In this document: piece after piece, positions 1 to 46,873 of the stretch | Layout of the letters: every line of letters begins with the position of its first letter | Numbering within the stretch: position 1 is the first letter of the stretch | Assembly: GCA_034687125.1 (NCBI GenBank) | Contig: JAQGBZ010000448.1 | Location: 1-46,873, forward strand | Origin: Neelides folsomi | Lineage: Eukaryota > Arthropoda > Collembola > Neelipleona > Neelidae | DNA: 46,873 bases | Direction of reading: 5' to 3' | Notes under the pieces: generated by a model | Seen by the model: the letters and a program-made list of their open reading frames with translations, nothing else | Told to the model about the DNA's origin: nothing | Database searches by the model: none | Translations under genes and position numbers: made by a program

Positions 1-125
1 GGACATTCCGGAAACGGTAAAATTTCCAGGTTCATAACCTGGAAGTTCGGACATTCCGGAAACGGTAAAATTTCCAGGTTCATAACCTGGAAGTTCGGAC
101 ATTCCGGAAACGGTAAAATTTCCAG
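1..125 (-). repeat. 48-bp tandem repeat coding for 16-residue units
   Basis: Two full near-identical 48-bp units (1-48, 49-96) and a partial third (97 to about 125) lie in frame in the last visible exon of copy A. Each encodes GNFTVSGMSELPGYEP, with a possible N-glycosylation site (NFT) per unit. The array continues beyond the left edge, so its length is unknown. Confidence 0.95.
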
Positions 126-2107
126 AATCAGTGCTTCCCTCACTACCACTTTCAGAACTTCCAGAATTTATGTTACCAGAAATTGCAGAATTTACTATAT
201 TTTCTCCACCGCTGCTAAAGCCTTCAGGATTATTTTCTTTAGAACCTCCAGAATTATTGTCGTCAGAAATTCCAGAAATGTCAGTACTGTTGCCGCTTGA
301 AGCAGTAAGCTCAAATCCACCAGAATTAACGCCTTGGAGAGAACTGAGACCGTCGGAAGTCTCAATCCTTCTTTTCAAACTTGGAATGAGTCGTTCGATT
401 ATTTTCCTCATTATTTCGATCTGTGGGCCTTTTTGAGTGGCTGAAAAATAATAAAAGCGTTTGTTGAATAAATTATAAATTTTAAATGGTTGCATTCTTT
501 CAATTAGGTTTGAACTGAACAAATTCAATTCAATGCTGATTTATTTACCGAAATGACTTCCAGTTAATCCAAATGTATCCCAACATCCTTCATCGTTTTC
601 ATCCGAACTTATAGTTTGAGGAAAAATCATAACAATGTTATTTGACTCCGCAACTTGTAAAAACCCGCTATTTTCAATATGATTTGTGCCATTAAACTCC
701 CTTGAAAATTGAACGGAATCGTTTAGAAATTCTTTTAAATATCACAATTGTATTTTTATATCTCAATAATAGTTGATTTTCAATTTTGTGAAATTTATTA
801 TTGATTAAATTCTTCATACCTTCCAGTCGAGCAACCGTGAAAGTAAAAATGAAGGAGACATTCAGCGCTAGAATCTCTGCAACCAGAGGGGATATACATC
901 AATCCGGTTTTATCCATAAAACTTTGTTCGTTCCTGATAAAAAATTCTGATTGATCGAAGTGCTCCAATGGATGAACTGCGACGTTTTCTTTAATTGCAC
1001 AAATTAACTATTTAATAATTTTTAATATATAAAAATGGCCATGGATTTACATTTTTGTAATGGGTATTTACTTTGCAACGATCTTAAGGAATTCTTTAAT
1101 AGAAATTGAAGACTTTCGTAAGCCCCGGGGAATTCACAATTGGCAATATGAAAATTTTCAGAAGCGTCGTCAAAGCAATCTCCTCCAAAATTATTTGTTG
1201 GCTGGAATTAAAATTAAATATATATTGATTTTAAAAGTAAATACAATCAGATTATAATTTATTATGTGAAATAACATGAGAAATTCATTATTAGTAAAAT
1301 ATATTTCGATTGATATAATTACCAAAATATTTTCTGCCACTTGAACAATAATCAAAATATTTGATTTGCTCACAATATGAGGTTCATAAATTTCCAAAAT
1401 TTTCAGACTTTGATCTTCAAATAAAAAGGAATATTAAATAAAGAAATTGATTAAAAATACTAAATTTTAAAATAATACGAACCTGTTGAAAATTTTGTAC
1501 TTTTAGTTCCAGTGTACACAAATAATCGTGTGTCCAATAAATTTTTAGGATTTTCAACCAGTTCATTTTTTGCATTTGTTTCAAATTCTGAAATTGCATT
1601 TGAAATTGAAATGTTGAAGCCTCGACGAAATCTTTGCTTTGAATTCAATTTTGTACAAGAAGTTTCGTAGTCTTCAATTCTTCCTGTTCCCGAACCACAA
1701 CCGTAATACGCTAATAAAATATTATTGATAAAAAGTTGGATTTATGATATAAAAAACATATCTTACTTGGGAAAACTAATACAGAAAAAATAATTTCTTA
1801 CTGTCAGAGAATACAGCAATTCCACTAAACAGACTCGAATAGGACAAATGGAATTGTTGAGCAAAAGCTCCACCGCTTGAAAATCCACTTAAAGTAATCC
1901 TATCACTATCGAGATTCATTGGACCTATTAAAATTATTAGATATAAATAATGATTTTAATTTGTGTCATCACATTAATTATAAAAACTTAAATAATTGGA
2001 TTAATTTTATTAAATTCACTTAATCTCGATGGAATTGTTCTCAGCCGCTGACAGTGGATTGTGTTAAGTAAAAATATGGAAATTATAATAGTTAAAAGGT
2101 ATTTCAT
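1..2107 (-). CDS. Secreted PHB depolymerase/esterase-like protein, copy A (3'-incomplete, 8 exons)
   Basis: Exons read on the minus strand: 2107-2020, 1924-1802, 1710-1483, 1414-1323, 1201-1072, 988-820, 700-549 and 440 to the window edge. All junctions are GT-AG and the phases match copy B exactly. The protein starts with a signal peptide (MKYLLTIIISIFLLNTIHC). It carries the nucleophile elbow SGFSSGGAFAQQF (Ser about residue 45), an FDQSEFF segment, CLLHFYFHGC and GCWDTFGLTG, which are landmarks of the extracellular polyhydroxybutyrate depolymerase/esterase family. At the position where the family carries GT-x-D, this copy has GTKSTKF, and the expected H-x-F-P site reads ENILPT, so Asp and His of the triad look missing. 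After residue about 340 comes a G/S/N-rich tail that enters 16-residue repeats (GNFTVSGMSELPGYEP) and runs off the window. 474 codons are visible and no stop is seen. Role: secreted; hydrolase activity doubtful. Family assignment is confident, function is not. Confidence 0.85.
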
Positions 2108-2248
2108 GTTTTTTCTTCTTTAATCACCTGATAAAATTAAAAATCTTCAAAAAATCTAAATTGTCATAAATTACAAATCATTCGCTAAATGTTTGAATTA
2201 ACTTCATCTATGAAGCTAAGAGTGATAGCATTGGGGTGGAAATGAAAG

Positions 2249-2290
2249 CTTTATATAATACGGAAAAGGGGAAAGGATTTAGGGAGGTAA
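2249..2290 (-). promoter_or_regulatory. Core promoter of copy A (TATA box with pyrimidine tract)
   Basis: On the minus strand TATATAAAG (2257-2249) sits about 140 bases upstream of the ATG. It is preceded by CCCCTTTTCCG and a longer pyrimidine-rich stretch reaching to about 2340. The same order, CTTTTCCG then a TATA box, occurs in front of copy B, which supports a real, co-duplicated promoter. The transcription start would be expected near 2220. Confidence 0.6.
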
Positions 2291-2340
2291 AAGGGAAGCA
2301 GAGGAAAGAATCTCTAAAGTTTCTAATGGAAACGGAAACA

Positions 2341-5300
2341 TAATTTTTACAGAAGAAGCATCTTTAATAAAGATTATCACTAAACTAGTTTATGCTTGAA
2401 AAAATGGAACCCTTTGTATGAAAAGAAGATGCCACATTAATAGTTTAATAGTCTTTCTTACGTTAACATGAAGAGGAGAAAAGGAAAGAAAACGCAGCGA
2501 AGATCACGCACAGCTTGAATCTTATGATAATTTAATTGTTTCTTTTTGGCATTAGCTCACAACATAAAAGGAAAAGTCATTTGACTCCATAACCATCAAT
2601 TACTATTTTTATTTTTGTGCTTTACAATCTTGGATATGAAGATATGATTTCCCATTCGAGTGGAGCATCTTTCCTGGGCTCTGTAATTGAATGCTACTAC
2701 AGTGCCATACATGAAGTGTTGGTAAAAACGAGTTTGAGATTAATAAAATTAACAATATGCACAATTTACATATGTCATTAAGCTTTATATAAGGAAATTT
2801 TCATGAGTAATGATTAAAGACAGGCAACTTAGCTTTATATGATCTTACAATTAACTTTTTACAATTTACCCAAAAGATGTTTTCTCAATTTTTTTAAAAT
2901 TCGCTAATAAAATTTTACAAGTAATTAGTAATTGCAAATAATTAATTTAAGTCAGTTATATTTTGTATATTGTGGGTGTGTGATATTTGCATTTGTTTAG
3001 GCTTTTAGGGCACGTTAATTGTCCTTAGGAAATTATCTGTTTAACTCTTTAATCTTTGCCTCGCCACTCGCAAATGCCAAATTATTATACGTTAATTAGC
3101 GAAGTTTCCGTCTAGTTTGGCTTTATACTTCCATACAAATTTATAGTCACAACTTTCATTTGCTATTTTGAGACACTTTATTCAATTTGCTAAAATGAAC
3201 AATTTTCTATTCAATTTTGACTTAAAGCTTGAATACTAAATAAATTATAGGCTTTTGACTATTAGGATGAAGCATCTAGAGTAAAAATTATCCTTCATTT
3301 CATTGGTTGGGTGAAGAGAGGGAAACCTATTTTAACTATCATAACAAAGTAATTGAAATGCTACTTTCTACTTATTCATTTGTAATATTCAATTTCTTGG
3401 TTCCTATGGTTGGCTGATTCGTGAGAGTAGAGAGTTCATTTGCATACGTGAATAGCTCAAAACATTTCCTAATTGAATTGCGTGGTAGCAAATGACATTG
3501 AGATGTCTGTATGATGAGTTTCCTAATCGGGAACTGAATTGAAGCATACTCTTCTTCCTCGCACATGTTCATTTTATGTTTATGATATAGGTGAATTTGA
3601 CAGACATGTAAACATACTTGACGACTTTGGGCAAAAAGAATGATTTTTTGTATGAATCCACTATAAAAATTCAATTTAATGGTTTTCATTATAGCTTCTA
3701 AGCAATTTCTTTTTCCATTAAGAAATAAAAAAAGTATAAGAATGAGAATTTCCAAGAATAGTAAAGAATTCAAGGATGATTCTTGTATTTGAGAACTCGT
3801 TTCACTAAATGAATTCCACCATCCAAGAAATTCATTTTATGACATTCATGCAATAAAGCTGTTGCATTAAAACAAGTGCTATTAATTATTAGACTGGAGA
3901 TGCTCAAATATGGTAATTATGGAGATTATCGGACGAGACACGTTAAATTAATTCCGCCAATTCTTCTTGAAAACCTTTTGCATAAATCTTTTATAAATGC
4001 AACCATTATTAATTGATCTTTAAAGTGATAAAATTAATTTAAAATATATTAATTTAAAATGATTAATAAAATTTACTTTAATGCTCTGCAAATTTGAAGG
4101 TAAGGTGGGATTGATTGGTTCCTAGTGGTCGGACGTCGTAATGCGTCTTCACATAAATCAGTAATGTGTAAGATTGTCGCACGTGGGAATCGAAACATTT
4201 TAATATGTAAGACTTTGATTTCAAGAAAAAAGTTATCCTATCCAAGAAGACTCTTTCCCTAATTATGCCTTGATTTCTTTCAATTTCTTCTATTAAAAGA
4301 AGTAAATTGACCCTATTTAACACCACTTATAACTTTAAGCCCTCACTTTTTGAAGCAATAAGTTTATGACCAAAATGATTTCTTTATGACCGGATTTTTT
4401 TATAAACACGTTGACACATTGGAGTTTAAATTGTCGGTATTTATAAAGCTACTAATAGCCAGTGCTTGTTCGGGCATGCCTGACAGCCCGATGCCTGACT
4501 CCCAATTTTGCTCGAATGCCCGACACTGTTGGGCGTCAAGTAAGCCTGAATGCTCTATATTCAAAAGATTGTTCAATTTCTTAAATATATTTTGCAGAAT
4601 TTCAAAAATGTTCAATTTATTGATTTCGTGAGACAAAATGCATCATCATACTAAGGGTAAATAGTGGAAACCATAAAAATTCATGTTCAAATAACGAGGC
4701 GAGATTGAAGCTTAATTTAATCTTCTTAATAATAACATATTTACAATTTCATCATCCAATAATTACAAAGTTCATCCAATAATTATGTGCCGGTTTAACT
4801 CTTAATCTTAGTAACTAATAAGGTATGACACGGCATGGCTTATAAATTATAATAAACTCAAAAATGAAGAAATTTAATAAAATCTTGAGAATAAATGAAA
4901 ACATTAATATTTAGGTATATAAATACAATTAGACATTGAGCAGGCAGATTGAATTTATAAGTCTCATCTTACCTCTGGCTGCCGAGCCCTGCTAATAGCT
5001 AACTTGATCAGTTGCCAACGTTCGTTTATAAGCACAAAAATTACTATTAGGTCATAAAGTTATGAAATTATTAAGTTATCATTTCGTAAACGATAACCGA
5101 TAACTATAACAGATCACCGCCCCTGAGTAATAACAATAAGCATTAATGTTCATGTATTCATTTTTGTAATAAATTATCTCATTTACCATCTGATATGGTT
5201 TAAGTTTAAATAGCAAATGCGCTTTTACATTGACAGCCAAATTTACATTTAATTTCTTTGAAATATATGATAACATTTAATTTTGACTAAGATTTGTTTG

Positions 5301-6177
5301 GAACCCCGAAGTTTACATATCTAATTATTGTGATCATTAAAACTCATAATGATTGATATTATAAATAGGTGATCAAATGTAAGAAATTAGAAGTTTTGAT
5401 AACATTCCATCATGTTTTCATGTACTCTTTCTACTCATTTATCTAACTTTTAGTCATTCAGGTTTTTTTAATCTTGACAAACTTACTCCTGTAGGTTCTT
5501 TCCTTTTTCCTACCTTCGACAAGAATTGTTTAACTCGCTTAATAATTCTCATCATCTCCATAGAAACATCCACAAAACAACTTTAAAGTAGAGCTCCGTT
5601 CGAAACGAAACCTGGGGGTCATTTCACAACAACTTGTCACTTTGAAAACAGATTTACGCTTGCCAAATGTAATATTAACCCTGAGTTTGCCCTAATTAAT
5701 TAATTACCTTGAGTATTAAAAATTATGAATAGTAAAAAAAATATAATTTAAAAAACTGGGCAAACTTAATAGTGAAGTGATCTGTAATTTTTGCAGACAA
5801 AAGCTAACTTTTTTCATCATTACTAATGATGGTCTTGTAACAATTATGAAAATGATTATTAAATGATAAAAAAGTACAAAAATGTACACTAAATTCAATA
5901 TTCATGGAATAGTGAAAAATCTATTGAAAACGGATTATAGGAAAATTGACGGATGAAAGGAAAGAGATAAAGTCAAAGGATCTCGTAATTAATTACATTA
6001 AACTAAATAGAAACTCATCATTTCTTATTACTCTCCCTACTTTGTTCAATATTTAATATGGTAAGGGTAAATTGGAAATAACGAAGTTATGTAAATTAAG
6101 AAGATTCCTAAAGTTTGTGAAACTTGTTACAATAACCAGACACATATAATTCACTCCATAAATGAACAGCTTGCATT
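2341..6177. other. Intergenic space between the divergent esterase-like genes
   Basis: About 3.8 kb of AT-rich DNA separates the two divergent promoters. I see no convincing exon. Short open frames at 3372-3773, 4078-4326 and 4386-4636 lack splice context, composition or motifs of a gene. A small GC-richer patch at about 4455-4545 contains GCCTGAC/GCCCGA words repeated at short distance, and another lies at 4965-5010; both may be worn transposon remnants. Confidence 0.5.
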
Positions 6178-6239
6178 TTGATGCATTTCCAACACTTCCA
6201 ATGCTTCAAAAAGCAGGAAAATTTTTATCTCGAGGCAGC

Positions 6240-6330
6240 TTCCCCTTTCCTTTCACTTCCTTTCTACTTTTATTTCCTTCTTTCCCACCCAAGTGCTTCA
6301 ATCGTTTCCGCTTTTCCGCTGTATAAAAGA
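6240..6330 (+). promoter_or_regulatory. Core promoter of copy B (pyrimidine tract and TATA box)
   Basis: A pyrimidine-rich stretch (about 6240-6320) ends in CTTTTCCGC, directly followed by TATAAAAG at 6322-6329. A start near 6350 would leave a leader of about 95 bases before the ATG at 6447. The arrangement mirrors that of copy A on the other strand. Confidence 0.65.
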
Positions 6331-6446
6331 CAACAATTCCTGAACGAACATCATTCGGAAGTTGGAAGATAAAAAATTGTTTTATATCAATTTGATACTC
6401 AATTTCAAATTTCTTTAAAATATTAAATATAATTTTATATAAGACA

Positions 6447-8938
6447 ATGAATTTGGTCACATTTATATTTTTATTATTTCTCCAGGCAATAAGTTCTCAA
6501 CGTCAAAGACCAACAAGATTAAGTGAGTTTTTATTTGGTCAAAATTATATTTTGTAATAAACAAATTTCTTCAAAGAATTAACTAATAAAACAATTAATT
6601 GATGTTTGATACCTTGTTAAAGGTCCCATGAGCCTCAATGCGAATCATATAACTTTAAGTGGTTTTTCAAGTGGCGGGGCTTTCGCCCAACAATTTCAGC
6701 TATCTTATTCAAATCTTTTCGATGGAATTGCCATTTTCTCTGACAGTAATTTTATAATTAATTTTTTTATAAATAAATGAATGGTGGGAATAATTGATTT
6801 TTCATTTTAGCCTATTATCGCTGTGGTTCGGCAACGGGCAGAATCGAAGATTATGAATCTGCGTGTACAAAATTGAGTTCAAACCAGAGGTCCCGCAGAG
6901 ATTTCAACGTTTCAAATGCAATTTCTGAATTGCAAAGGAATGCTTTAGCTGGATTGATTGATAATCCCGCAAATTTATTGAATACGAGATTGTTTGTGTT
7001 TGCTGGAACTAGGAGTTCAAAGTTTACAACAGGTTTACAATATTACATGAAAAAATACAAAGAAATTTTCAAAGTCGTTAATAACTTTTTTTGTTCCTAG
7101 ATCAAAGTCTGAGGATTTTAGACATTTATGAGCCATTTATTCAAAATTTATCAAACATTTACGTTGAAGTTCAAATTTCGGAAAACGTTTTGGTAAATCT
7201 GAAAAATTATCATCAATCCCATAAATGAGAAGATTAAAATTTCATAAATGGTTTATTTTTTAAATCGCTTTAACTGTTATTTTCCTTCTTCCTCAACAGC
7301 CATCTAATAATTTTGGAGGAAATTGTCACGAAGAAGCTTCGAGAAATTTCCATATTGCAAATTGTAACTTCTCAGGGGCCTATGAAAGTCTTAGATTTCT
7401 ATTGAGAAATTTATTACGCTTCCCTGAAAGTAATTTACTATTATATAATATTTTTTTAAATATAAAAACATTAAATGTTAATTATTTAACACCCATTCCT
7501 TTATCCATATAAATTACAATGTATTCAATATATTTATTTTTATTAATTTATATTTATTTATTTTAAGGAAACATAGCAGTTCATCCATTGGACCAGTTTG
7601 ACCAATCTGAGTTTTTTAACGGAATTGATGGCAACTATATGGATAGGATTGGTTTCATGTACATTCCATCCGGATGCAGAGATTCGTCTATTAACTGCCT
7701 GCTCCACTTTTATTTCCATGGTTGCTCAAATGGAAGGTATGTCCTTTTCACTAACAATTTTAACTTAACTTGCAAACATCTCTAATCATTAGAAAATCTA
7801 TATTCTCATATAAGGTCTTTAACAATTTAATTATCTTTCCAGGGAGTTTAATGGAACAAGTCATATTGTCAACAGCGGGTTTTTGCAAGTTGCAGAGGCA
7901 AACGACATTGTGATGATTTTCCCTCAAACTTTGAGCTCTGATGATAATGAAGAAGGATGTTGGGATACTTTTGGATTAACTGGAAAACTTTTTGGTACAT
8001 AAAATAAACATAAATTCTTTTAATTATAAAATAGATTTACTAGAATATTATTAATTAATAATATTAACTATTTAATTTAATTTAATTCAGCAACTCGGAG
8101 CGGGCGACAAATTGAAATTATGCGGAAAATACTTGAACGACTCATCCCAAGTTTGACTCGATCGAATCCTAGCGGAAGTGGTGGCACATCCTTACTCTCA
8201 AATAACCAAACTTTGATCAATCCAGCTCGCTTTGTCCTTCCCCCGCTTAACAGCGAGCTTCAGCCTGTCGGGATCAATGGGTTGGTTGGGGCGGAAGCTT
8301 TTGAATTTATAGATAGAGAAGATGGACGCGATTTGACTCCTAGACCCAGCAATTTCCAATCTCCCACGAACCAACGACAAGTTCCACAAACTTCCTCGTT
8401 GATGAGTCCATTTTTCCCAAGTCGGTTTCAACCCTTCCGACCACAACAAGGAAATTTCCAATCCCCTCTAAATGCCTTCGACTTCCAATCCTTCCAACAG
8501 CCTCAAGGAAACGCGCAGCCCGGAAATTTACAAACTGCTCTTCCCCAATTTAACAATTTAAATTTTCAATCTTTAGGACTCCAAAATTCCCAGCCAAATT
8601 CAAATCCCAATTTCCAATCTTTCGATTCTCGCCAACCGATTTTCAACCAAAATTTCCCGACATCTCAGGAAGGAAGTCCCCAAACGAGCAATTTCCAAAC
8701 AACTGATTCTCAACCAAACTTTGGAGATTTTAACGGACTCAATCCGGACTCGTTGGCGTTGGGCTCAGAGCCTAACCTGGAGGAAGTTCAGCTTGAGCAA
8801 TCCTTCCCTGAAGCTGAAACGAATTCCCAAACACCAAATGTTCAAATCTCACAGAGTTCTCCAAATTCACCAAAAATAATTCGAATTCGACTCCGCCGCA
8901 GATCAAAAAAACACGTGGAAAAATCTGTTATTGAATAG
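6447..8938 (+). CDS. Secreted PHB depolymerase/esterase-like protein, copy B (complete, 603 aa, 8 exons)
   Basis: Exons: 6447-6522, 6623-6745, 6811-7032, 7101-7192, 7300-7429, 7568-7736, 7843-7994, 8091-8938 (stop TAG). All introns are GT-AG and the frame stays open for 603 codons. A signal peptide (MNLVTFIFLLFLQAISS) is followed by the esterase fold: LSGFSSGGAFAQQF (Ser41), paired Cys at 71 and 85, FDQSEFF (225-231), CLLHFYFHGC (258-267), AEANDIVMIFPQ and GCWDTFGLTG (309-318). The residue expected to be Asp in GT-x-D is Ser135 (GTRSSKF), and the expected His near 169 is Asn (SENVLPS). Residues about 346-603 are a low-complexity Q/N/P/F/S tail with NFQSP, FQSFQQPQ and NFPTSQ words, ending in a basic RIRLRRRSKKH patch. 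In bacteria and fungi the family degrades extracellular polyester. Here the triad looks broken, so an altered role is likely. AATAAA at 9034 may be the polyadenylation signal. Confidence 0.9.
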
Positions 8939-9677: not shown

Positions 9678-10364
9678 ATGAATTTAAATATTTTATTTCT
9701 CGGAACTCTCGCTATTTCATTCTTTGATGGAACTTCAGCCCAAACACAAGACCGCTTTGCTGGGATGGGTCTGTTCGAAATATTCTTTTATAAAATTTAA
9801 TAATTAATTATCTCTAAATTATATCTTCAATTATCTCATTCATATAAAAATGACTTAAATTTATACAATTGTAATTTTTTAGAATGCACCGAAGGCTTTT
9901 GCCAAGGGCCAGGTCGAACTCACCAACAAGTTGTTTCATATTGCATTGGAGAAAATTTTGAAACTGCGATTGAATCAAATTTCTGCCGCAATTCTGAAGA
10001 TGGTTTTGAGTATAAATGTTGCAGACGCGTAGGATTCTTTGGCCAATCTCCAATAGAAAACGAAATTGACGGCAATTCTCAAAACCAACCTTTCCTTTTT
10101 CCACAAGGCCCTCAACAATGGCCTCAACAATGGCAACAAGGCCCTCAACAATGGCCTCAACAATGGCAACAACAAAGGCAACAACGGCAACAATGGCCTC
10201 AACAATGGCAACAAGGCCCTCAACAATGGCCTCAACAATGGCAACAACGGCAACAAGGCCCTCAACAATGGCCTTTAACACGTTCTCAGCCACCTCAGAG
10301 AATCCCTTCAAACAATATGCGTCCGTTTGGAAACCCTCAATTACCAAGACCATTTTCCAAGTAA
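9678..10364 (+). CDS. Secreted six-cysteine protein with PQQW repeats, gene C (190 aa, 2 exons)
   Basis: Exon 1 is 9678-9768 and exon 2 is 9883-10364 (GT-AG, phase 1), giving 190 codons and a TAA stop. Exon 1 encodes a signal peptide (MNLNILFLGTLAISFFDGTSA, then QTQD). Exon 2 begins with a cysteine module, C-x4-C-x13-C-x13-C-x10-CC, covering about residues 31-80. The rest is a repetitive tail of GPQQWPQQWQQ-type units (11 residues) followed by a Pro/Arg end. The tail is rich in Gln and Trp and lacks charged residues except Arg. The same plan recurs in gene D, so the reading frame and splice are well supported. I do not recognise the cysteine module. Secreted matrix, glue or cuticle protein is inference. 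AATAAA at about 10471 and 10499 could end the transcript. Confidence 0.85.
10104..10275 (+). repeat. In-frame PQQW minisatellite of gene C
   Basis: Imperfect 33-bp units built from CCTCAACAATGG and CAACAAGG blocks encode GPQQWPQQWQQ. At least three units are visible, with a variant part carrying RQQRQQ. Alternative frames stay open only because of the repeat. Confidence 0.9.
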
Positions 10365-11251: not shown

Positions 11252-12371
11252 CCAAATTAAACCTTATAATATAGTAATTAAAGTGTGTAATAATTTATTT
11301 GAAATGGCCTCCCTTGTTCTTCACGCAGGCTTTGAGTCGTGGGATCCAATCTTTGATGGACTGACGAATTTGATCCATGGGAAAATCAGCCAATTTTTTG
11401 GTCAAAGATTTTTTGAGGCTGTCCAAATTTTTATGAGGTCTTGAACAAACACTGTTCTGAAGTTTGTCCCAAATTGAATAATCGAGGGGGTTCAAGTCCG
11501 GTGATGCCGAAGGCCATTCGTCCTTTGAAATGTAATCGGGAAATTGAGTTTTTCAACCAGGTCTGAACAGTCTTGGCTTTGTGGGATGGAGCCGAATCTT
11601 GCTGAAAAACCCAATTCTTGTCCTTGAGAAAACTTCTGTTTAAAGGTTCAACAACTGGTTTAAGAATATCCGAGAGATAATTCGTGGCACTCACTTTAAC
11701 ACCCTGTTTTACAAAATGAATTTTGGTTTTCCCCCACCAATTGACACCAACCCAAACCATCACACTTATCGGATGTTGATGTTTGGGAATATTTCTGAAG
11801 CAAGAAGGAATTTCTTTACTTGATCTGGCATATACTCTGTTGTTTTGTTTATTGAATTTTTGGTCGACAGTAAAGATTTTCTTGTCTGTGAATAGGATAT
11901 TTTTAAATCTTCCTTTTGCAAAACGCCGAATGAGTTTTGCACTTTTGATTCTCCGTCTAGTAATTTGGTCCTTGGTCAGAAAATGGCAATATCTTTTCTT
12001 GAAGGCTTTTAATTTCAAATCCTTTTTAATTGCTCTTGAAATTGTCATCTTGGAAACTTTCATTTGGATGGACAAATTTTTTTGTGAACGGCAAGGATTT
12101 TTCTTCAACCTTGCTTTTAAGTTTTCTAGAAATTTCTTCGTTCTCACCTTTCTTTTAATTTTAATCCCCTTTTTTATTTGCGGTTCCACTTGACCCGTTT
12201 CTTTCAATCTTTTTATTGTACTGTAAACCAATCTTCTGTTAACTCCGGTTGGCTCGAGAAGTCGGAAAATCTGCAAATCTGCTTTTTCCGCTTCGTGAAG
12301 AGCTTGAATTGCCGCGCGCTTTTTCATATTCACCATTTCTCAACGCCTTCCTTTTAAATTCTAATATTTGG
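11252..12371 (-). mobile_element. Tc1/mariner element nested in the fold-back element
   Basis: The element encloses the transposase pseudogene. Short inverted tips CCAAAT (11252-11257) and ATTTGG (12366-12371) are each flanked by TA, the duplicated target of this superfamily. The tips are short and otherwise diverged, so the exact ends are tentative, but the length of about 1.1 kb suits a mariner. Confidence 0.6.
11295..12336 (-). pseudogene. Tc1/mariner-family transposase, frameshifted
   Basis: The first frame (12336 down to about 11540) begins MVNMKKRAAIQALHE and contains helix-turn-helix regions (about residues 20-110). It also has ILFTDKKIFTVDQ with the first catalytic Asp (151), the block SVMVWVGVNWWGKTKIHFVKQG and FQQDSAPSHKA with the second Asp (about 247). 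After WLKN the frame shifts. SPDLNPLDYSIW, holding the third Asp, and the end RLKACVKNKGGHF lie in another frame (to the stop at 11295). D2 and D3 are about 33 residues apart, as in DD34D-type enzymes. One frameshift and otherwise long open frames point to a fairly recent, now inactive copy. Confidence 0.85.
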
Positions 12372-15199: not shown

Positions 15200-15930
15200 A
15201 TGAATTTAAGCATTTTATTATTCGGAACGTTTGTTCTTTCTCTCGGATTAAATGGAACTCAAGCCCAAACACAGGATCCTTATGCTGGGATGGGTTTGCT
15301 CAAATTATTATTATTATAAAAAACATTGATCAAAAAATTATTATATTTAATTATTATCAATGAAATATTTTACTAAAATTCTTTTTTTTAGAATGCACCG
15401 ATGAATTTTGTCAGGGGACAAGGAGAAGTGGAAATGAAGTTGTCCAATATTGCCAGACAAATGGTTTCGAAACGGCAGCCGCGGTGGGTTTTTGCAGAGA
15501 TCGTTCACAAAACGGCCAGTTTTCTTATAAATGCTGCAGAAGACCAGGGCAAAACAACCGATTGAATCTTTTGAACGAAATTAACGACAATCCATCGGCC
15601 CGAAGACAACTGCTGCGAAGTTTTAATACGCAAGTTCCACGCACTCGATCACAACAACAACAATTCCCAACGTTTTTCCAACAGCAACAATTTCCAGTGT
15701 TTTCACAAATTCAACCACTTCCAAACAATTTTGTTCCAAATCCCCAAAACCGCAGGCAACAATCTTTCCAGCCGCAATTTCCAACTTCGCAACAATCTTT
15801 CCAGCCGCAATTCCCAACTTCGCAACAATCTTTCCAGCCGCAATTCCCAACTTCGCAACAATCTTTCCAGCCGCAATTCCCAACTTCGCAACAATCTTTC
15901 CAGCCTCAATTTTTCTCTCCCCAATTTTAA
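15200..15930 (+). CDS. Secreted six-cysteine protein with QSFQPQFPTSQ repeats, gene D (210 aa, 2 exons)
   Basis: Exon 1 is 15200-15293, exon 2 is 15392-15930 (phase 1 intron, as in gene C), with a TAA stop. The signal peptide MNLSILLFGTFVLSLGLNGTQA is followed by QTQD. Then comes C-x4-C-x13-C-x13-C-x12-CC, with identical short motifs to gene C (ECT, CQG, GFETA/NFETA, YKCCRR). Residues about 85-150 are an N/R/Q-rich spacer. The tail has four and a half 11-residue units (QQSFQPQFPTS), ending SPQF. The cysteine module is conserved from gene C while the tails are unrelated in sequence but equal in unit length. It is a tandem-duplicate paralogue 5.5 kb from C with transposon insertions between. 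Role unknown; secreted structural or adhesive protein is inferred. A possible polyadenylation signal AATAAA lies near 16033. Confidence 0.87.
15757..15910 (+). repeat. In-frame 33-bp repeat of gene D
   Basis: Four nearly identical 33-bp units start CAACAATCTTTCCAGCCGCA and are followed by a partial fifth. Between-unit differences are single bases, implying recent unequal exchange or slippage. Confidence 0.95.
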
Positions 15931-34350: not shown

Positions 34351-35975
34351 ATGTATTTGTTAAATTTTAAATTTGTATTATTCAATTTGAATTTTTTAAT
34401 TATTTTTGCTGAGCTCCAAAACGAGGATTGGGTTCTTCACGCCCCAAAAGAAAACCCAAATGGGATTTGGGGACCGTGGGAAAAGTGCAATCCTGGAGAG
34501 TTCGTTACAGGCCTGGCATTGAAAATACAAAAAGAGGAAAATCCACACTACGACGAATTTGGGATTTCAGGGCTGGAATTTTATTGCGGAAATCCAGGAG
34601 AAATAAATTTCCACACACTTCACAGCAGCATTGCAAAAGAAGGCCAATGGACAAAAAGCGTTTTCCCCTGCAAGGGATTCATCCAGGGATTTCAATTAGA
34701 AATCGACACAGATTTGGACAAAGAGGATTACGCGGGAGTTACAAATATTCGACTGTTTTGCACTGAAGGCAGAGTTTACGAACCGAAATCAAATTCCATT
34801 TATGGGGAATGGACAGAACCACAAATGTGTCGTAAAGGTCAAGCTATTTGTGGAATTCAAACAATGATCAAAAATCCAATTGAAAGTAAATTGAAATTAA
34901 ATAACTTTATTTTATTATTATTTTATATTTTAAGAGAAATTATAAATTTTACTAATTAAATTGTTTAAAAATATTTGTATTCAATTATTAATTATTTAAA
35001 GCGGGAGACCTCGTTGGAATAAATTCATTAAAAATGAAATGTTGTGAAATTTCCGATCAAGTGATTAATTGCTTTCCAAAGGACAATTGGGAAATTGTTT
35101 TCGAAGTCGACAACAGTCTCGGCTTTGTTCCAATCTCCTACACTTACACAAAGCAAATCGGAATGTCCAGAAAAGACGGGAAGAATTCTGGTAAAAAAGG
35201 AGATGCGACAGGTCAAGGAGAACAAGAATACAAACAAGAAAATAAAAGAGTTTTCTCAACAACATCATCCCCAGGAATGGTTTACAAAAATAAGAAAATT
35301 AAAAAAAATCCCCTGATTAATTTCAATGTTCCCGTTTCAAATAAAAAGCCAAATAAAAATTCCGGTCATTCTTCCAAAAACAAGCAAAAAGGTAGAAGCA
35401 GGAAAAATAAATTAAATAAAGGAAAAGCAAATAAAACTGATTTAGTGACTTCTTCCAAAGAATTGAATTCAGAAGGGAAATCCGATGAAAATTCACTAGA
35501 ATTAGCAAATTCAAATCACCAATTTGGAATTTCCGGTCTTTCAAATCGCCAAATCGGAATACCCAATCTTCCCCCTCCAATTGGCCCATCGCCGCCAGAT
35601 TCGTCCAATGACGGCAGAGACAACACGGAACGAATGGTTTATTTTTACCGCCAAAATTTAAAAATTTCCAAAACAACGGGATTCAATTGGATGACTGCTT
35701 CCGACGAAACTTTTTCTCCAATGAAATCCGCATATGTTGACATTAGCGTGGCTCCAGGTCATTATATTGCCGTTTATCAAGTTGTGGGGATTTGTGGGGA
35801 TTATTTTGTAAGGCCAGAGAAATTCTATCAAAATGGTTCTTACAACGATCCAGAGAAAAATAGAAGGGAAATTTCTTATTATGAATGGAGAAGTCTGTCG
35901 AAATTCACGAGAATTCTTGATAACATTTCATCAATGTATCAACACATGCTTAATATTGCAAAAGTATTTTGGTGA
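34351..35975 (+). CDS. Secreted VMO-I domain protein with C-terminal beta-rich domain, gene E (502 aa, 2 exons)
   Basis: Exon 1 is 34351-34885, exon 2 is 35002-35975 (GT-AG, phase 1), with a TGA stop. The signal-like N-terminus (MYLLNFKFVLFNLNFLIIFA) leads into a vitelline membrane outer layer protein I domain (about residues 25-195). Its three repeats are visible as IWGPWEKCNPGEFVTGLALK with ISGLEFYC, GQWTKSVFPCKGFIQGFQLE with GVTNIRLFC, and GEWTEPQMCRKGQAICGIQT with GINSLKMKCC. Then come FEVDNSLGFVPISYTYTKQI, a long K/N/S-rich basic spacer (about 240-390), and a conserved end, FNWMTASDETFSPMKSAYVD and APGHYIAVYQVVGICGDYFV. VMO-I is a beta-prism fold found in egg coats and secretions. The end domain is shared with gene F. 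It looks like a beta-sandwich, perhaps of aerolysin type, but this is unproven. The start codon is the first ATG of the open frame. Confidence 0.88.
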
Positions 35976-36915: not shown

Positions 36916-38808
36916 ATGGAAATTCGAATAATTTTAATATTCTTAATTTTAATCCATTTTAAATTCAAATACACAAATTGTGAAATTAAACAATATATTT
37001 TGCATGGGCCTTCAGAAGAAAAAGACTTGCCTGGCTTTTGGGGCCCTTGGGAAGAATGCGAACCAAACACGTACGTTATTGGGTTCAAAGTTAAAAGCGA
37101 AAATTCCCGGGTTTTGAGGAAGAACGAGGTCGAAAGCGGGGACACTTTTGGGCTTTCGGGCATCGAATTAATTTGTGGGATTGCGGGAAACTTAACTTAT
37201 TTGAAAAAAATCACAAGTAACGTTGCCGCGGAGGGGGAATGGTCGAGGGCTAAATTCTGCGAGGGATACGCGGTGGGATTTGAAGTTAAATTGGAAGATG
37301 AGAAAAAACAGAAGAAAGGAGATTTTGTTGGGGCAACAAATGTCCGAATGCAATGTTCGGCCCGGAGAGAAATAATTGAACATCATTTGGATTACCAGCC
37401 GGGCTTTTGGTCGGAGCCGGAATTGTGTTTAAGAAATCAAGCTGTATGTGGTTTAAGAACAAAAACAAAAATTGCTTTTGAAAATGGTAATAAATTATTT
37501 TTACTTTCAATTGTTATTGTTTATTGATTAAATTATTTATTGTAAAATTTCATAAATTACTATTTAACAATAATTTAAATAATGGCTAACAAGATGATTT
37601 ATACATTAGTTATTTAATCATAAGTTTAATTAAAATTATAAATTTACAATTATCTGTAGGTAATAATCAATTTCTCATTTCAATTTCTAATTTCTGATAA
37701 TTTTATTTATCTTTTAATTTGCTATTTATATTTACTTGATCTATTTAATAATTATTTTATTTTTTACGCAGAGGATCTTGTTGGATTGAGTTCTTTAAAA
37801 CTGAAATGTTGCAATTTAAACTTCCAGTCTGAAATTTGCATTCCCAGAGATGGATTGGAACTTTTATTCGATTACGACAACAGACTCGGCCTTCAGACTG
37901 TGACCTACAGTTATACCTTGACTGTTGGGGTTTCTCAATCAACTTCCGTCTCTGACTCAAAGCACAAAGACGTTGTTGGGAATGGGATGTTGGGAGTTGA
38001 ATACCAAGTTGGAAACGGCACAAGGGAAGTTCAAGGAAGGCGAAAAAGAAGTTTGAAGATTCCAAGAAAAATCAGAAACAAAAACAAAGACAGAATTCAA
38101 GATGATTTGAAAAACAACATTTATGAAAATATGCAATTCAATTTACGTCAAATGGGAAATCCGTTTCCGGTTCCTCCACCCGATCCAATTCCCCCTCCGA
38201 TAAATCCCGCACCCGCTCCTGCAATTCCACCCGGCACTTTTCCTATTCCGACACCACCAGTTGGGACAGTACCTGTACTGCCAATGCCACCAGGTGGAGC
38301 TGTGCCTGTGATGCCACCTGGCGGTGGTGGCGGGGCGCCAGTAATGCCGATGCCACCTGGGGCCGGAAATGCCACCCAGCCAGCCCAACCAGTTGTTTGC
38401 GCTCCAATGATGATGCCACCGGCCATTTTTAACCCATCGGTCAATACAGAAATGCTCAGGATTTACACGCTGAATGCTTATGGGACTTTGAGCACTGGCT
38501 ACAATTGGGGAACGAGCGGATCTAGCACGTGGAGTCCCGCACGAACAACAAAAGTTTCTGTTAACATTCCGCCAGGACATTCGATATCAATTTATCAAGT
38601 TGTGGGGGTTTGCGGGGATATTATCATAAGACCGGAAAAAATATTCCAAAATGGGACGTATTTAGAAGAGAAGGCAAGATCAGCGACAGAAGACAACAGT
38701 TGGGGAGGATTTCTTTATTTCAATAACTTTGTAAATCAAATGCCCTCAATTTTGAACGACTTTTTCAATGTTGGGAAAAAATTTGCAAAAATTATAAAAT
38801 TATTATGA
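36916..38808 (+). CDS. Secreted VMO-I domain protein with proline-rich linker and C-terminal beta-rich domain, gene F (535 aa, 2 exons)
   Basis: Exon 1 is 36916-37486, exon 2 is 37772-38808 (GT-AG, phase 1 at the same codon position as gene E). The signal peptide (MEIRIILIFLILIHFKFKYT) precedes a VMO-I domain: FWGPWEECEPNTYVIGFKVK with LSGIELIC, GEWSRAKFCEGYAVGFEVKL with GATNVRMQC, and FWSEPELCLRNQAVCGLRTK with GLSSLKLKCC. The next segment, FDYDNRLGLQTVTYSYTLTV, matches gene E. GRRKRS at about residue 280 is a candidate furin site. A proline/glycine/methionine-rich linker (PVPPPDPIPPP, PPGGGGGAPVMP) replaces the basic spacer of gene E. The shared end domain follows: YNWGTSGSSTWSPARTTKVS and PPGHSISIYQVVGVCGDIII. 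It is a tandem paralogue 0.9 kb after gene E. Likely secreted; target unknown. Confidence 0.9.
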
Positions 38809-44439: not shown

Positions 44440-46190
44440 ACCGTGATTACAAATTCTAAAGCACGATTTTAAAATTTGATAAATTTAAAATTTAATAAGC
44501 TTTTATTTCATATCACATTAGAATATTTGATATAAATATAGATTTTAGAATACATAAATTCTATTGTTTTCTTCATTTATTTATGTATTTACAATATAAA
44601 TATGCTAAAGCCATTGAAAAATTTATTATTCAACGTCAGTTTGACGTTGATTGTTTTTAATGGAAAAATTTTTGTTTCATAAAAGAATGGAATAATTTAA
44701 TATTTTATGACAAGTAAAATTTCACGCCTATATCTAATTGTATAATCTTGATATACCGTTATTACTCAAAAGAACGCCAACTGCTTTCTTTTAAAAATCG
44801 GAGTCTAATCGGAGCGTTCTTTGAAAATTTTCTAAACTCTTTTTCAACTGTCTTTTGTCTGATAAAATAATAAGCTCTTTTTTTGAAATGAAATTTAAAA
44901 TAATGTCCAATTCGTTCAAATGTTGTACTTTATAAATAATGTAAAATGAATTTGCAACAGCCTTTATTCCTATAGAGGTTGAAATTTAATTATTTTTGTT
45001 TAACAATAAAACTAATCGAATACGAGTGATCATAGAAAAGTGGATAATTTTTTTAAATCGCTTAATAAGATTACTTGAAGTGTTTATGTCAATGTATTTA
45101 ATAAACGGCAATGTTTACAATTTATGTCAAAATTCATCTTTTAAAAATCGGAGGCTTACTTTGAAAATTTTGTTCGGTTTATAAAATTTAAAAAATAATT
45201 ATCCATATAAATATTAAAAACAATATTAAAAGTGAACCAAAACGTGATTATCTTTTCCAATTCTAATAATGTTATTGGATTTTGACCACTACTTTTAAAA
45301 TAAGAGATTTTAAATGAAATATTCCAATAAAAAGGTTTAGCTAATTTATAGCTAAAATATTAATGTATATAAAGAATGGGTAATCCTAAATAGACTCATG
45401 GGTTCTTTTGAGCCCCGGCGGTCTTTAAATATCTCACTAATGATCCCCGTCGTTCTTTTGAGCAATATTGGTATTAATAAAATTCATCATGTTATGATAT
45501 TGATTCAAATTAAATAATTTTTTGATTCTTCACGTTTGTTACAAGAAGACAATTTGAAAAGAATATTGGAGAGCATGGATTGTTTTAATTATTCTTTGCA
45601 TGAATAATGAAAATGACATTGACATTGACTTACTTGTATAACCTAATAATAATTTAGATAATCATGGTCAAAAATTCTATATATTATTGTATCACACTTC
45701 ATTATCTCATAACTATTCCACATCAAGTCATCAAATATTTGAAAAATGCAAGAGCAATATAAAAATTTAAAGTAACCCTGAATTACTCGTTAAGAGCAAC
45801 TTAAAAATTCCTAAAAGAAACTCTATATTTCATTAAAAATAAATTAACTAGCTTTAGATGTTCAAAGATGCGAATTAAGGATATATGAATATAGTATGAA
45901 TATTAACAGAATATTAAAATGTAATATTTACTTTTACTATGTAAATTAAACAATTAGAGAACTGGCAAAATTAATTAAAGGCAATTTGTTGAGCGAATGA
46001 TTAAAAAATACTATGATTGAAAATATAATTGATAAAAAGGTCAAAATATATATTTTGTATATAAAATATTGGGAATTTCAATGAGGAACGATTTAAAAGT
46101 AGGGTAGTGTTTCGGAGTTGTTCCGTTTGCCATTTAATTGGAGTCACTCTATTTGAAGTACTTTTCAAAGTTTGGAACAATTGTCTTCAT
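44440..46190. other. AT-rich spacer with dispersed repeats
   Basis: CTTTTAAAAATCGGAG and TTGAAAATTTT occur at about 44788-44835 and again at 45137-45170. CTCAAAAGAACG at about 44766 recurs inverted at about 45452, and TTCTTTTGAG also at about 45403. CAACGTCAGTTTGACGTTG at about 44632 is a perfect small hairpin. No gene is supported. Confidence 0.4.
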
Positions 46191-46191
46191 T

Positions 46192-46218
46192 AGGTTAGGT
46201 TAGGTTAGGTTAGGTTTG
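46192..46218 (+). repeat. Short TTAGG tract
   Basis: About five TTAGG units in the same orientation as the terminal array, 530 bases before it. Confidence 0.9.
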
Positions 46219-46749: not shown

Positions 46750-46873
46750 TAGGTTAGGTTAGGTTAGGTTAGGTTAGGTAAGGTTAGGTTAGGTTAGGTT
46801 AGGTTAGGTTAGGTTAGGTTAGGTTAGGTTAGGTAAGGTTAGGTTAGGTTAGGTTAGGTTAGGTTAGGTTAGG
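46750..46873 (+). repeat. (TTAGG)n telomere-type array reaching the window edge
   Basis: About 24 units of TTAGG, the arthropod telomere repeat, run to the last base. Two variant TAAGG units at about 46780 and 46835 are exactly 55 bases (11 units) apart, indicating a duplicated block. The G-rich strand runs 5' to 3' towards the right edge, the orientation of a right-hand chromosome end. Confidence 0.9.

What the first reader, a model, noticed from the sequence alone, without database searches (positions are those of the whole stretch)
1..8938. Two PHB-depolymerase-like proteins that keep Ser but appear to have lost the catalytic Asp and His
Seen: both copies have the nucleophile motif GFSSGG and all flanking landmarks, but where the family normally has GT-x-D they read GTRSSKF (B, residues 132-138) and GTKSTKF (A). 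Where H-x-F-P is expected they read ENVLPS and ENILPT. Known: the extracellular depolymerase/esterase family uses a Ser-Asp-His triad. Inferred: the same losses in both paralogues suggest the loss predated duplication and that the fold was kept for a non-catalytic role, such as polymer binding or structure.
Basis: partly seen in the sequence, partly recalled or inferred. Interest (0 to 1): 0.75.

Follow-up and report, generated by a model that had tools for sequence, protein, structure and literature searches.

The report
Springtail pseudo-depolymerases that kept Ser
Two neighbouring springtail genes look like enzymes that digest a bacterial plastic, but they and all their close springtail relatives found here lost two of the three catalytic residues while keeping the third and much of the pocket, which suggests an enzyme turned into a binding protein.

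Summary
Both are eight-exon genes (B complete, A cut by the contig edge) whose domain aligns almost end to end with Penicillium funiculosum PHB depolymerase (PDB 2d80). Ser41 and the oxyanion HGC are kept; the Asp121 position is Ser and the His155 position is Asn.

The loss is much older than this gene pair. All 31 rows of one clade (6 from this genome, 14 from Allacma, two Orchesella and Folsomia, 11 unnamed) lack both residues; all 46 canonical relatives on the same tree keep both. The window's genome also holds three canonical paralogues (C287, C316, C104) and two nearer ones with Asp but a shifted or missing His (C234, C5).

The clade has not simply decayed: pairwise dN/dS is 0.05-0.13, Ser shows no change, and pocket positions carry clade-specific residues, while the former Asp and His columns change at a roughly average rate. 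Best reading: a springtail-wide secreted pseudoenzyme family whose old hydrolase pocket binds a ligand, somewhat as GID1 does. Ligand and role are unknown.

The parts
6447..8938 (+). Gene B: exons 6447-6522, 6623-6745, 6811-7032, 7101-7192, 7300-7429, 7568-7736, 7843-7994, 8091-8938; 603 aa, hydrophobic N-terminal signal-like peptide, type 2 PHB-depolymerase-like domain to about residue 343, then a low-complexity tail
   Evidence: PDB 2d80 match; signal peptide judged by eye, no predictor run
1..2107 (-). Gene A: exons 2107-2020, 1924-1802, 1710-1483, 1414-1323, 1201-1072, 988-820, 700-549, 440-1 (runs off base 1 of the contig); same domain, 68% identical to B over 358 aa
   Evidence: same exons from the spliced aligner
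6667..6669 (+). B Ser41, nucleophile of GFSSGG (2d80 Ser39); 28 of 28 clade rows that reach the column
7014..7016 (+). B Ser135 in the catalytic Asp column (Asp of GSSD in 2d80)
7184..7186 (+). B Asn169 in the catalytic His column (2d80 His155)
7723..7725 (+). B Cys267 of HGC, oxyanion-zone residue (2d81 C250 contacts the ligand according to PMC7034887, passage seen)
7862..7864 (+). B His278, clade-specific His (30 of 31; canonical rows have Tyr or Phe in 44 of 46)
8156..8938 (+). B C-terminal tail, about 256-260 aa, rich in S, Q, P, N and F, with stop codon
1..125 (-). End of A's tail as far as the contig goes: 48-bp tandem repeat coding GNFTVSGMSELPGYEP, 2.6 copies

Best explanation
A and B are members of a springtail-wide family of secreted pseudoenzymes derived from type 2 extracellular short-chain PHA depolymerases. 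Shown: the catalytic Asp and His are absent throughout one well-supported clade, the fold is under purifying selection, and the nucleophile Ser, the oxyanion-zone HGC and GCWD stay invariant while neighbouring pocket positions carry new conserved residues. Inferred: the pocket no longer hydrolyses by the canonical triad but still holds an ester-, carboxylate- or lipid-like ligand with Ser41 and the oxyanion zone, much as the plant receptor GID1 uses its inherited hydrolase pocket. The long C-terminal tails of the copies in this genome would then tether or assemble the protein outside the cell. The ligand and the tissue are not known.
For: Near full-length match to 2d80 and to NCBIfam NF050059: 199 bits for B over residues 28-339, below its cut-off of 280, while the three canonical animal rows tested score 312-337. 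Clade of 31, support 100/100, with the two motif regions left out of the tree. Asp 0 of 31 and His 0 of 31 versus 46 of 46 and 46 of 46. The Ser column has 0 changes against a median of 7 per column, while the Asp and His columns have 6 each, so they now change at about the average rate. Clade-specific pocket set: Val to Phe at 138 (31 of 31; the position of 2d81 V124, a ligand contact), Gly to His or Asp at 66 (27 of 29), Ala to Ser at 65 (27 of 29), Trp to Thr or Ser at 313 (31 of 31), Tyr/Phe to His at 278 (30 of 31). Omega 0.05-0.13 in 15 of 15 pairs, 2dlnL 115.8-222.5 against omega=1. GID1 precedent: loss of the catalytic His, with gibberellin contacting the Ser and Asp (PMC3531792, passages seen).
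Against: No ligand, expression or activity data; ligand binding is inferred from conservation alone. Invariance is not special to the Ser: 35 of 335 columns have no change in the clade, and a Ser within GxSxG could be held for folding of the elbow. GID1 keeps its Asp, here lost. A relocated catalytic base is not excluded. No three-dimensional model could be made. The tails are not conserved across the clade.
Confidence: 0.55

Rival explanations
1. Purely structural scaffold: the fold is kept as an inert secreted module (cuticle, mucus or egg coat), and Ser41 and HGC persist only because the elbow and disulphides need them.
For: Cysteines and several glycines invariant; Ser41 is one of 35 invariant columns out of 335; long low-complexity tails in B, C20, C259 and C710 and a Ser/Gly-rich one in A; the former Asp and His columns drift.
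Against: Ser (28 of 28), HGC (31 of 31), Trp311 (31 of 31) and a set of new clade-specific pocket residues are held through the clade, which an inert pocket would not obviously need.
Confidence: 0.25
2. Rewired hydrolase: the base moved to a clade-specific residue, His278 or, in most members, His at position 66 after strand beta6, so the protein still hydrolyses an ester.
For: Ser and the oxyanion zone invariant; His278 in 30 of 31 and His66 in 22 of 29. The end of strand beta6 lies beside the nucleophile, and in four of 40 alpha/beta-hydrolase families compared the catalytic acid sits there (residue XIV; PMC7034887, passages seen).
Against: Neither residue is invariant: P0014 lacks His278, and position 66 is Asp in A, B, C20, C259 and C710, Ser in P0145 and Tyr in P0146, a row with a truncated N-terminus. 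By the 2d80 alignment position 66 is XIV+1, not XIV. Geometry untested.
Confidence: 0.17
3. Artefact of gene modelling or alignment: wrong splice sites hide the real Asp and His.
For: An intron (phase 0, between residues 171 and 172) lies two residues downstream of the His column.
Against: The same losses are in 31 of 31 rows, 14 of them database proteins from four named species; intron positions 67/1, 141/1, 172/0, 271/2 and 322/1 are the same in the canonical own-genome copies C287, C316 and C104, which do show Asp and His. From 6 residues before to 8 after the His column no position has His in more than 1 of 31 rows.
Confidence: 0.02

Closest known systems
Penicillium funiculosum PHB depolymerase (PDB 2d80/2d81), type 2 extracellular scl-PHA depolymerase
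   Same: Colinear match over nearly the whole domain; GxSxG before the oxyanion HGC (type 2 order); GCWD kept
   Different: Asp121 and His155 positions hold other residues in all 31 clade rows; Val124 position is Phe; Trp after GCWD is Thr or Ser; some members carry a long C-terminal tail
Canonical springtail PHB-depolymerase-like proteins, several with CBM14 (for example Folsomia P0033, Orchesella P0037/P0038; own-genome C287 groups with them)
   Same: Same fold and same animals; in the window's genome five intron positions shared with the canonical copies
   Different: Complete Ser-Asp-His; many carry a chitin-binding CBM14 domain; no CBM14 was found in the clade members scanned
GID1 gibberellin receptor (alpha/beta-hydrolase turned receptor)
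   Same: Catalytic His lost, nucleophile Ser and pocket retained (PMC3531792, passages seen)
   Different: GID1 keeps Asp and descends from the hormone-sensitive lipases of plants (PMC3531792); no relation closer than the fold is claimed; no ligand known here

Membership tests
Type 2 extracellular scl-PHA depolymerase (NF050059 / 2d80 family) | Full-length sequence similarity | tested here: met
   B residues 28-339 cover model 4-305 of 305 at 199 bits; 2d80 E=1.9e-19
Type 2 extracellular scl-PHA depolymerase (NF050059 / 2d80 family) | Curated equivalog score (280 bits) | tested here: not met
   B 199, P0007 196, P0001 191, P0014 195; canonical animal rows P0033, P0019, P0015 at 337, 312, 313
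Type 2 extracellular scl-PHA depolymerase (NF050059 / 2d80 family) | Oxyanion hole C-terminal to the lipase box (type 2 order, PMC2666664, passage seen) | tested here: met
   GFSSGG at 39-44, HGC at 265-267
Type 2 extracellular scl-PHA depolymerase (NF050059 / 2d80 family) | Ser-Asp-His triad | tested here: not met
   Ser 28 of 28, Asp 0 of 31, His 0 of 31
Type 2 extracellular scl-PHA depolymerase (NF050059 / 2d80 family) | PHB-hydrolysing activity | not testable with these tools
   needs purified protein
Pfam PF10503 Esterase_PHB | Gathering score 23 bits | tested here: not met
   A 12.6 bits; B not listed at E<=1; no six-frame hit in the whole genome, where exons are searched singly. Some canonical animal rows also stay below it (P0033 18.8, P0019 13.1 bits), so this test discriminates poorly
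GID1-like hydrolase-derived receptor (works like) | Catalytic His lost, Ser kept | tested here: met
GID1-like hydrolase-derived receptor (works like) | Asp kept and contacts ligand | tested here: not met
   Asp 0 of 31
GID1-like hydrolase-derived receptor (works like) | Ligand binding in the old active site | not testable with these tools
   no structure prediction available

The most novel reading that the evidence does not exclude
Early in springtail history a PHA depolymerase swapped its catalytic apparatus for a new one: Ser41 and the oxyanion zone stayed, the old Asp and His were dropped, and a new base (His278, with His or Asp at position 66) took over, giving a lineage-specific hydrolase or covalent ligand receptor that expanded to at least six copies in the window's genome.
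Probability: 0.15. Interest if true: 0.78.

Novelty: new variant of a known kind. Interest (0 to 1): 0.52.

Why it matters
It looks like a single-origin case of an enzyme losing Asp and His but keeping its nucleophile and oxyanion zone, with canonical (C287, C316, C104) and possibly intermediate (C234, C5) paralogues still in the same genome. That makes the enzyme-to-binder step open to direct test. It also warns about names: Orchesella dallaii P0009, called 'Poly(3-hydroxyalkanoate) depolymerase C' in UniRef, and O. cincta P0141, whose listed name begins the same way, belong to this clade and lack the catalytic Asp and His.

Tried and rejected
Pfam Esterase_PHB search of the whole genome gave nothing; a protein search found the copies exon by exon. 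The position six residues after the lost Asp column is acidic in 24 of 31 rows, so not invariant. Papers: six searches joining springtail, Collembola or Folsomia with depolymerase, polyhydroxy- or pseudoenzyme terms and one on metazoan PHB depolymerase and gene transfer listed 0, 0, 1, 1, 3, 0 and 1 papers, none of which by title and start of abstract concerns this family; they were not opened, and most subscription papers are not held. Hisano 2006 (2d80) was not read, only its use in PMC7034887. tRNA and Rfam scans of the window found nothing.

Rows left out: the searches returned 153 distinct proteins; one search listed only the best 120 of 420. The tree has 80 rows = 11 own-genome models and 69 of the 153 proteins, picked by hand before the counts to thin out near-duplicates; short fragments (P0017, P0103-P0106, P0152) and the weak, partial matches P0108-P0138 were left out. 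The wider 111-row alignment (all of P0001-P0106 of 250-560 aa plus the 11 models, counted) shows the same pattern: in 20 of 20 clade rows neither Asp nor His, Ser 20 of 20; in the 91 others Asp 91 of 91 and His 89 of 91, the exceptions being C234 (His one residue off) and C5.
Full report
WHAT IS THERE. The window is base 1-46873 of contig C448 of an unnamed 75.1-Mb genome in 840 contigs. Two genes are transcribed away from each other: B on the plus strand (8 exons, 6447-8938, 603 aa) and A on the minus strand (8 exons from 2107 to base 1, where the contig begins and the gene is cut). Both were modelled by hand; a spliced aligner recovered the same exons. They share all seven intron positions and phases and are 68% identical over 358 aa. 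That the animal is a springtail is inferred from the family tree and agrees with a (TTAGG)n array at 46750-46873 (that this is the arthropod telomere repeat is recalled).

THE MOTIFS. Aligned to the solved Penicillium funiculosum PHB depolymerase (2d80), E=1.9e-19 for B alone and 1.6e-43 for a 16-row profile, the Asp of GSSD stands opposite Ser and the His of VHTFP opposite Asn in B. PMC7034887 lists Ser39, His155, Cys250, Thr123 and Val124 of 2d80/2d81 at the active site (passages seen); the number Asp121 is recalled and fits the alignment.

HOW OLD IS THE LOSS. Three protein searches and nine further loci in the same genome supplied 80 rows for a tree built without the two motif regions. Thirty-one rows form one clade with 100/100 support: six from this genome (A, B, C20, C259, C710, C578), 14 from Allacma fusca (2), Orchesella cincta (4), O. 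dallaii (4) and Folsomia candida (4), and 11 from unnamed sources. Not one of the 31 has Asp (17 Asn, 13 Ser, 1 Gly) or His (19 Leu, 7 Gln, 3 Asn, 1 Thr, 1 Phe); 46 of 46 canonical rows have both. The nearest branches are from the window's genome and Allacma: C234 and Allacma P0107 (Asp kept; His one residue off in C234, present in P0107, which is a partial protein) and C5 (Asp kept, no His at the column). The enclosing 34-row clade has 99/96 support; the order of C5 and C234/P0107 is weak (80/50 and 86/0), and C5 is a long branch. Canonical own copies C287, C316 and C104 fall elsewhere, near CBM14-bearing springtail proteins and fungus-gnat proteins. Introns 67/1, 141/1, 172/0, 271/2 and 322/1 are common to A, B, C20, C259, C287, C316 and C104; C578 has the first four (its model ends early), C5 lacks 172/0, C234 has 62/1 in place of 67/1 in a badly aligned stretch, and C710 was not mapped. 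Pseudoenzymes and canonical copies thus come from one intron-bearing ancestor.

DECAY OR NEW CONSTRAINT. Over 335 columns the median has 7 parsimony changes within the clade. The Asp and His columns have 6 each, so they behave as average columns. The Ser column has 0 (28 of 28 rows that reach it), as have HGC (31 of 31), Trp311 and Asp312 (31 of 31). As a caution, 35 of the 335 columns have no change, so an unchanged Ser is not unusual by itself; its meaning comes from the contrast with its two former partners. Positions fixed or nearly fixed in the clade but different in the canonical rows include Val to Phe 138 (31 of 31), Trp to Thr/Ser 313 (29 and 2 of 31), Tyr/Phe to His 278 (30 of 31), Ala to Ser 65 (27 of 29) and Gly to His (22) or Asp (5) at 66 of 29. 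By the 2d80 alignment 65 and 66 are residues XIV and XIV+1, beside the nucleophile, and 138 is the ligand-contacting Val124. Pairwise omega is 0.05-0.13 for all 15 own-genome pairs over 309 codons, far from 1; synonymous divergence is high (dS 0.72-4.80), so single values are rough.

WHAT IT LIKELY DOES. By the canonical triad these proteins should not hydrolyse esters. The invariant Ser and oxyanion zone with a re-specialised pocket fit a binding protein somewhat better than an inert scaffold. The best mechanistic parallel is GID1, which lost the His and binds gibberellin with the Ser and Asp of the old site (PMC3531792, passages seen). In this genome B, C20, C259 and C710 carry long tails rich in Q, N, P, S and F, and A a Ser/Gly-rich one of at least 121 aa. 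Among 19 database rows read, tails run from 24 to 122 aa in 16, with 175 and 186 aa (Ser/Thr/Pro-rich) in Orchesella P0009 and P0010 and 260 aa of a different kind in Allacma P0140. The tail is thus a local elaboration, perhaps for assembly outside the cell. Signal peptides were judged by eye.

WHAT SPEAKS AGAINST. His278 is a real candidate for a new base: it is the only nearly invariant His that is specific to the clade. Its absence in P0014 and the variability at 66 argue against, not conclusively. His220 and His265 are unlikely as substitutes.

KNOWN OR NEW. No Pfam family reaches its cut-off for A, B, P0001, P0007, P0009 or P0142. NCBIfam NF050059 recognises the domain, but the four clade members tested stay below its cut-off (191-199 against 280) while the three canonical animal rows pass. 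The paper searches named under Tried and rejected listed no description in the held library. I file it as a new pseudoenzyme variant of a known enzyme family.

Noticed in passing
window 46750-46873 and 46190-46216: (TTAGG)n arrays, 24.8 copies at the very end of the window: looks like an arthropod-type telomere, which would put the gene pair about 38 kb from a chromosome end.
   Followed up: no
window 34351-34959 and 36916-37527 (+), with following ORFs 35034-35975 and 37786-38808: Two neighbouring ORFs with a vitelline membrane outer layer (VOMI, PF03762) domain, each followed by an ORF with a similar C-terminal part; no Pfam hit for the latter.
   Followed up: partly
window 11431-12336 (-): ORF of 301 aa that looks like a Tc1/mariner-type transposase (by eye); only an HTH_11 domain passes in Pfam.
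   Followed up: partly
window 10103-10274: Tandem repeat (33/42/75-bp readings) coding NGLNNGNKAL-like repeats next to a Cys-containing stretch.
   Followed up: no
window 15484-15930 (+): Gln-rich ORF with 4.7 copies of a 33-bp repeat (QQSFQPQFPTS), 98% alike; no Pfam hit.
   Followed up: no
L023 (G000:C234:59000-63000) and L024 (G000:C5:166600-171000): Closer paralogues that keep Asp but have His shifted by one residue (C234) or no His at the column (C5): possible intermediates of triad loss; the C5 model is uncertain.
   Followed up: partly
P0020, P0022, P0027, P0029, P0030, P0033-P0035, P0037, P0038, P0041, P0042, P0044: Canonical PHB-depolymerase-like proteins with a chitin-binding CBM14 domain, named ones from Folsomia and Orchesella, the rest unnamed; fungus gnats (Bradysia, Pseudolycoriella) have canonical relatives without it.
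   Followed up: no
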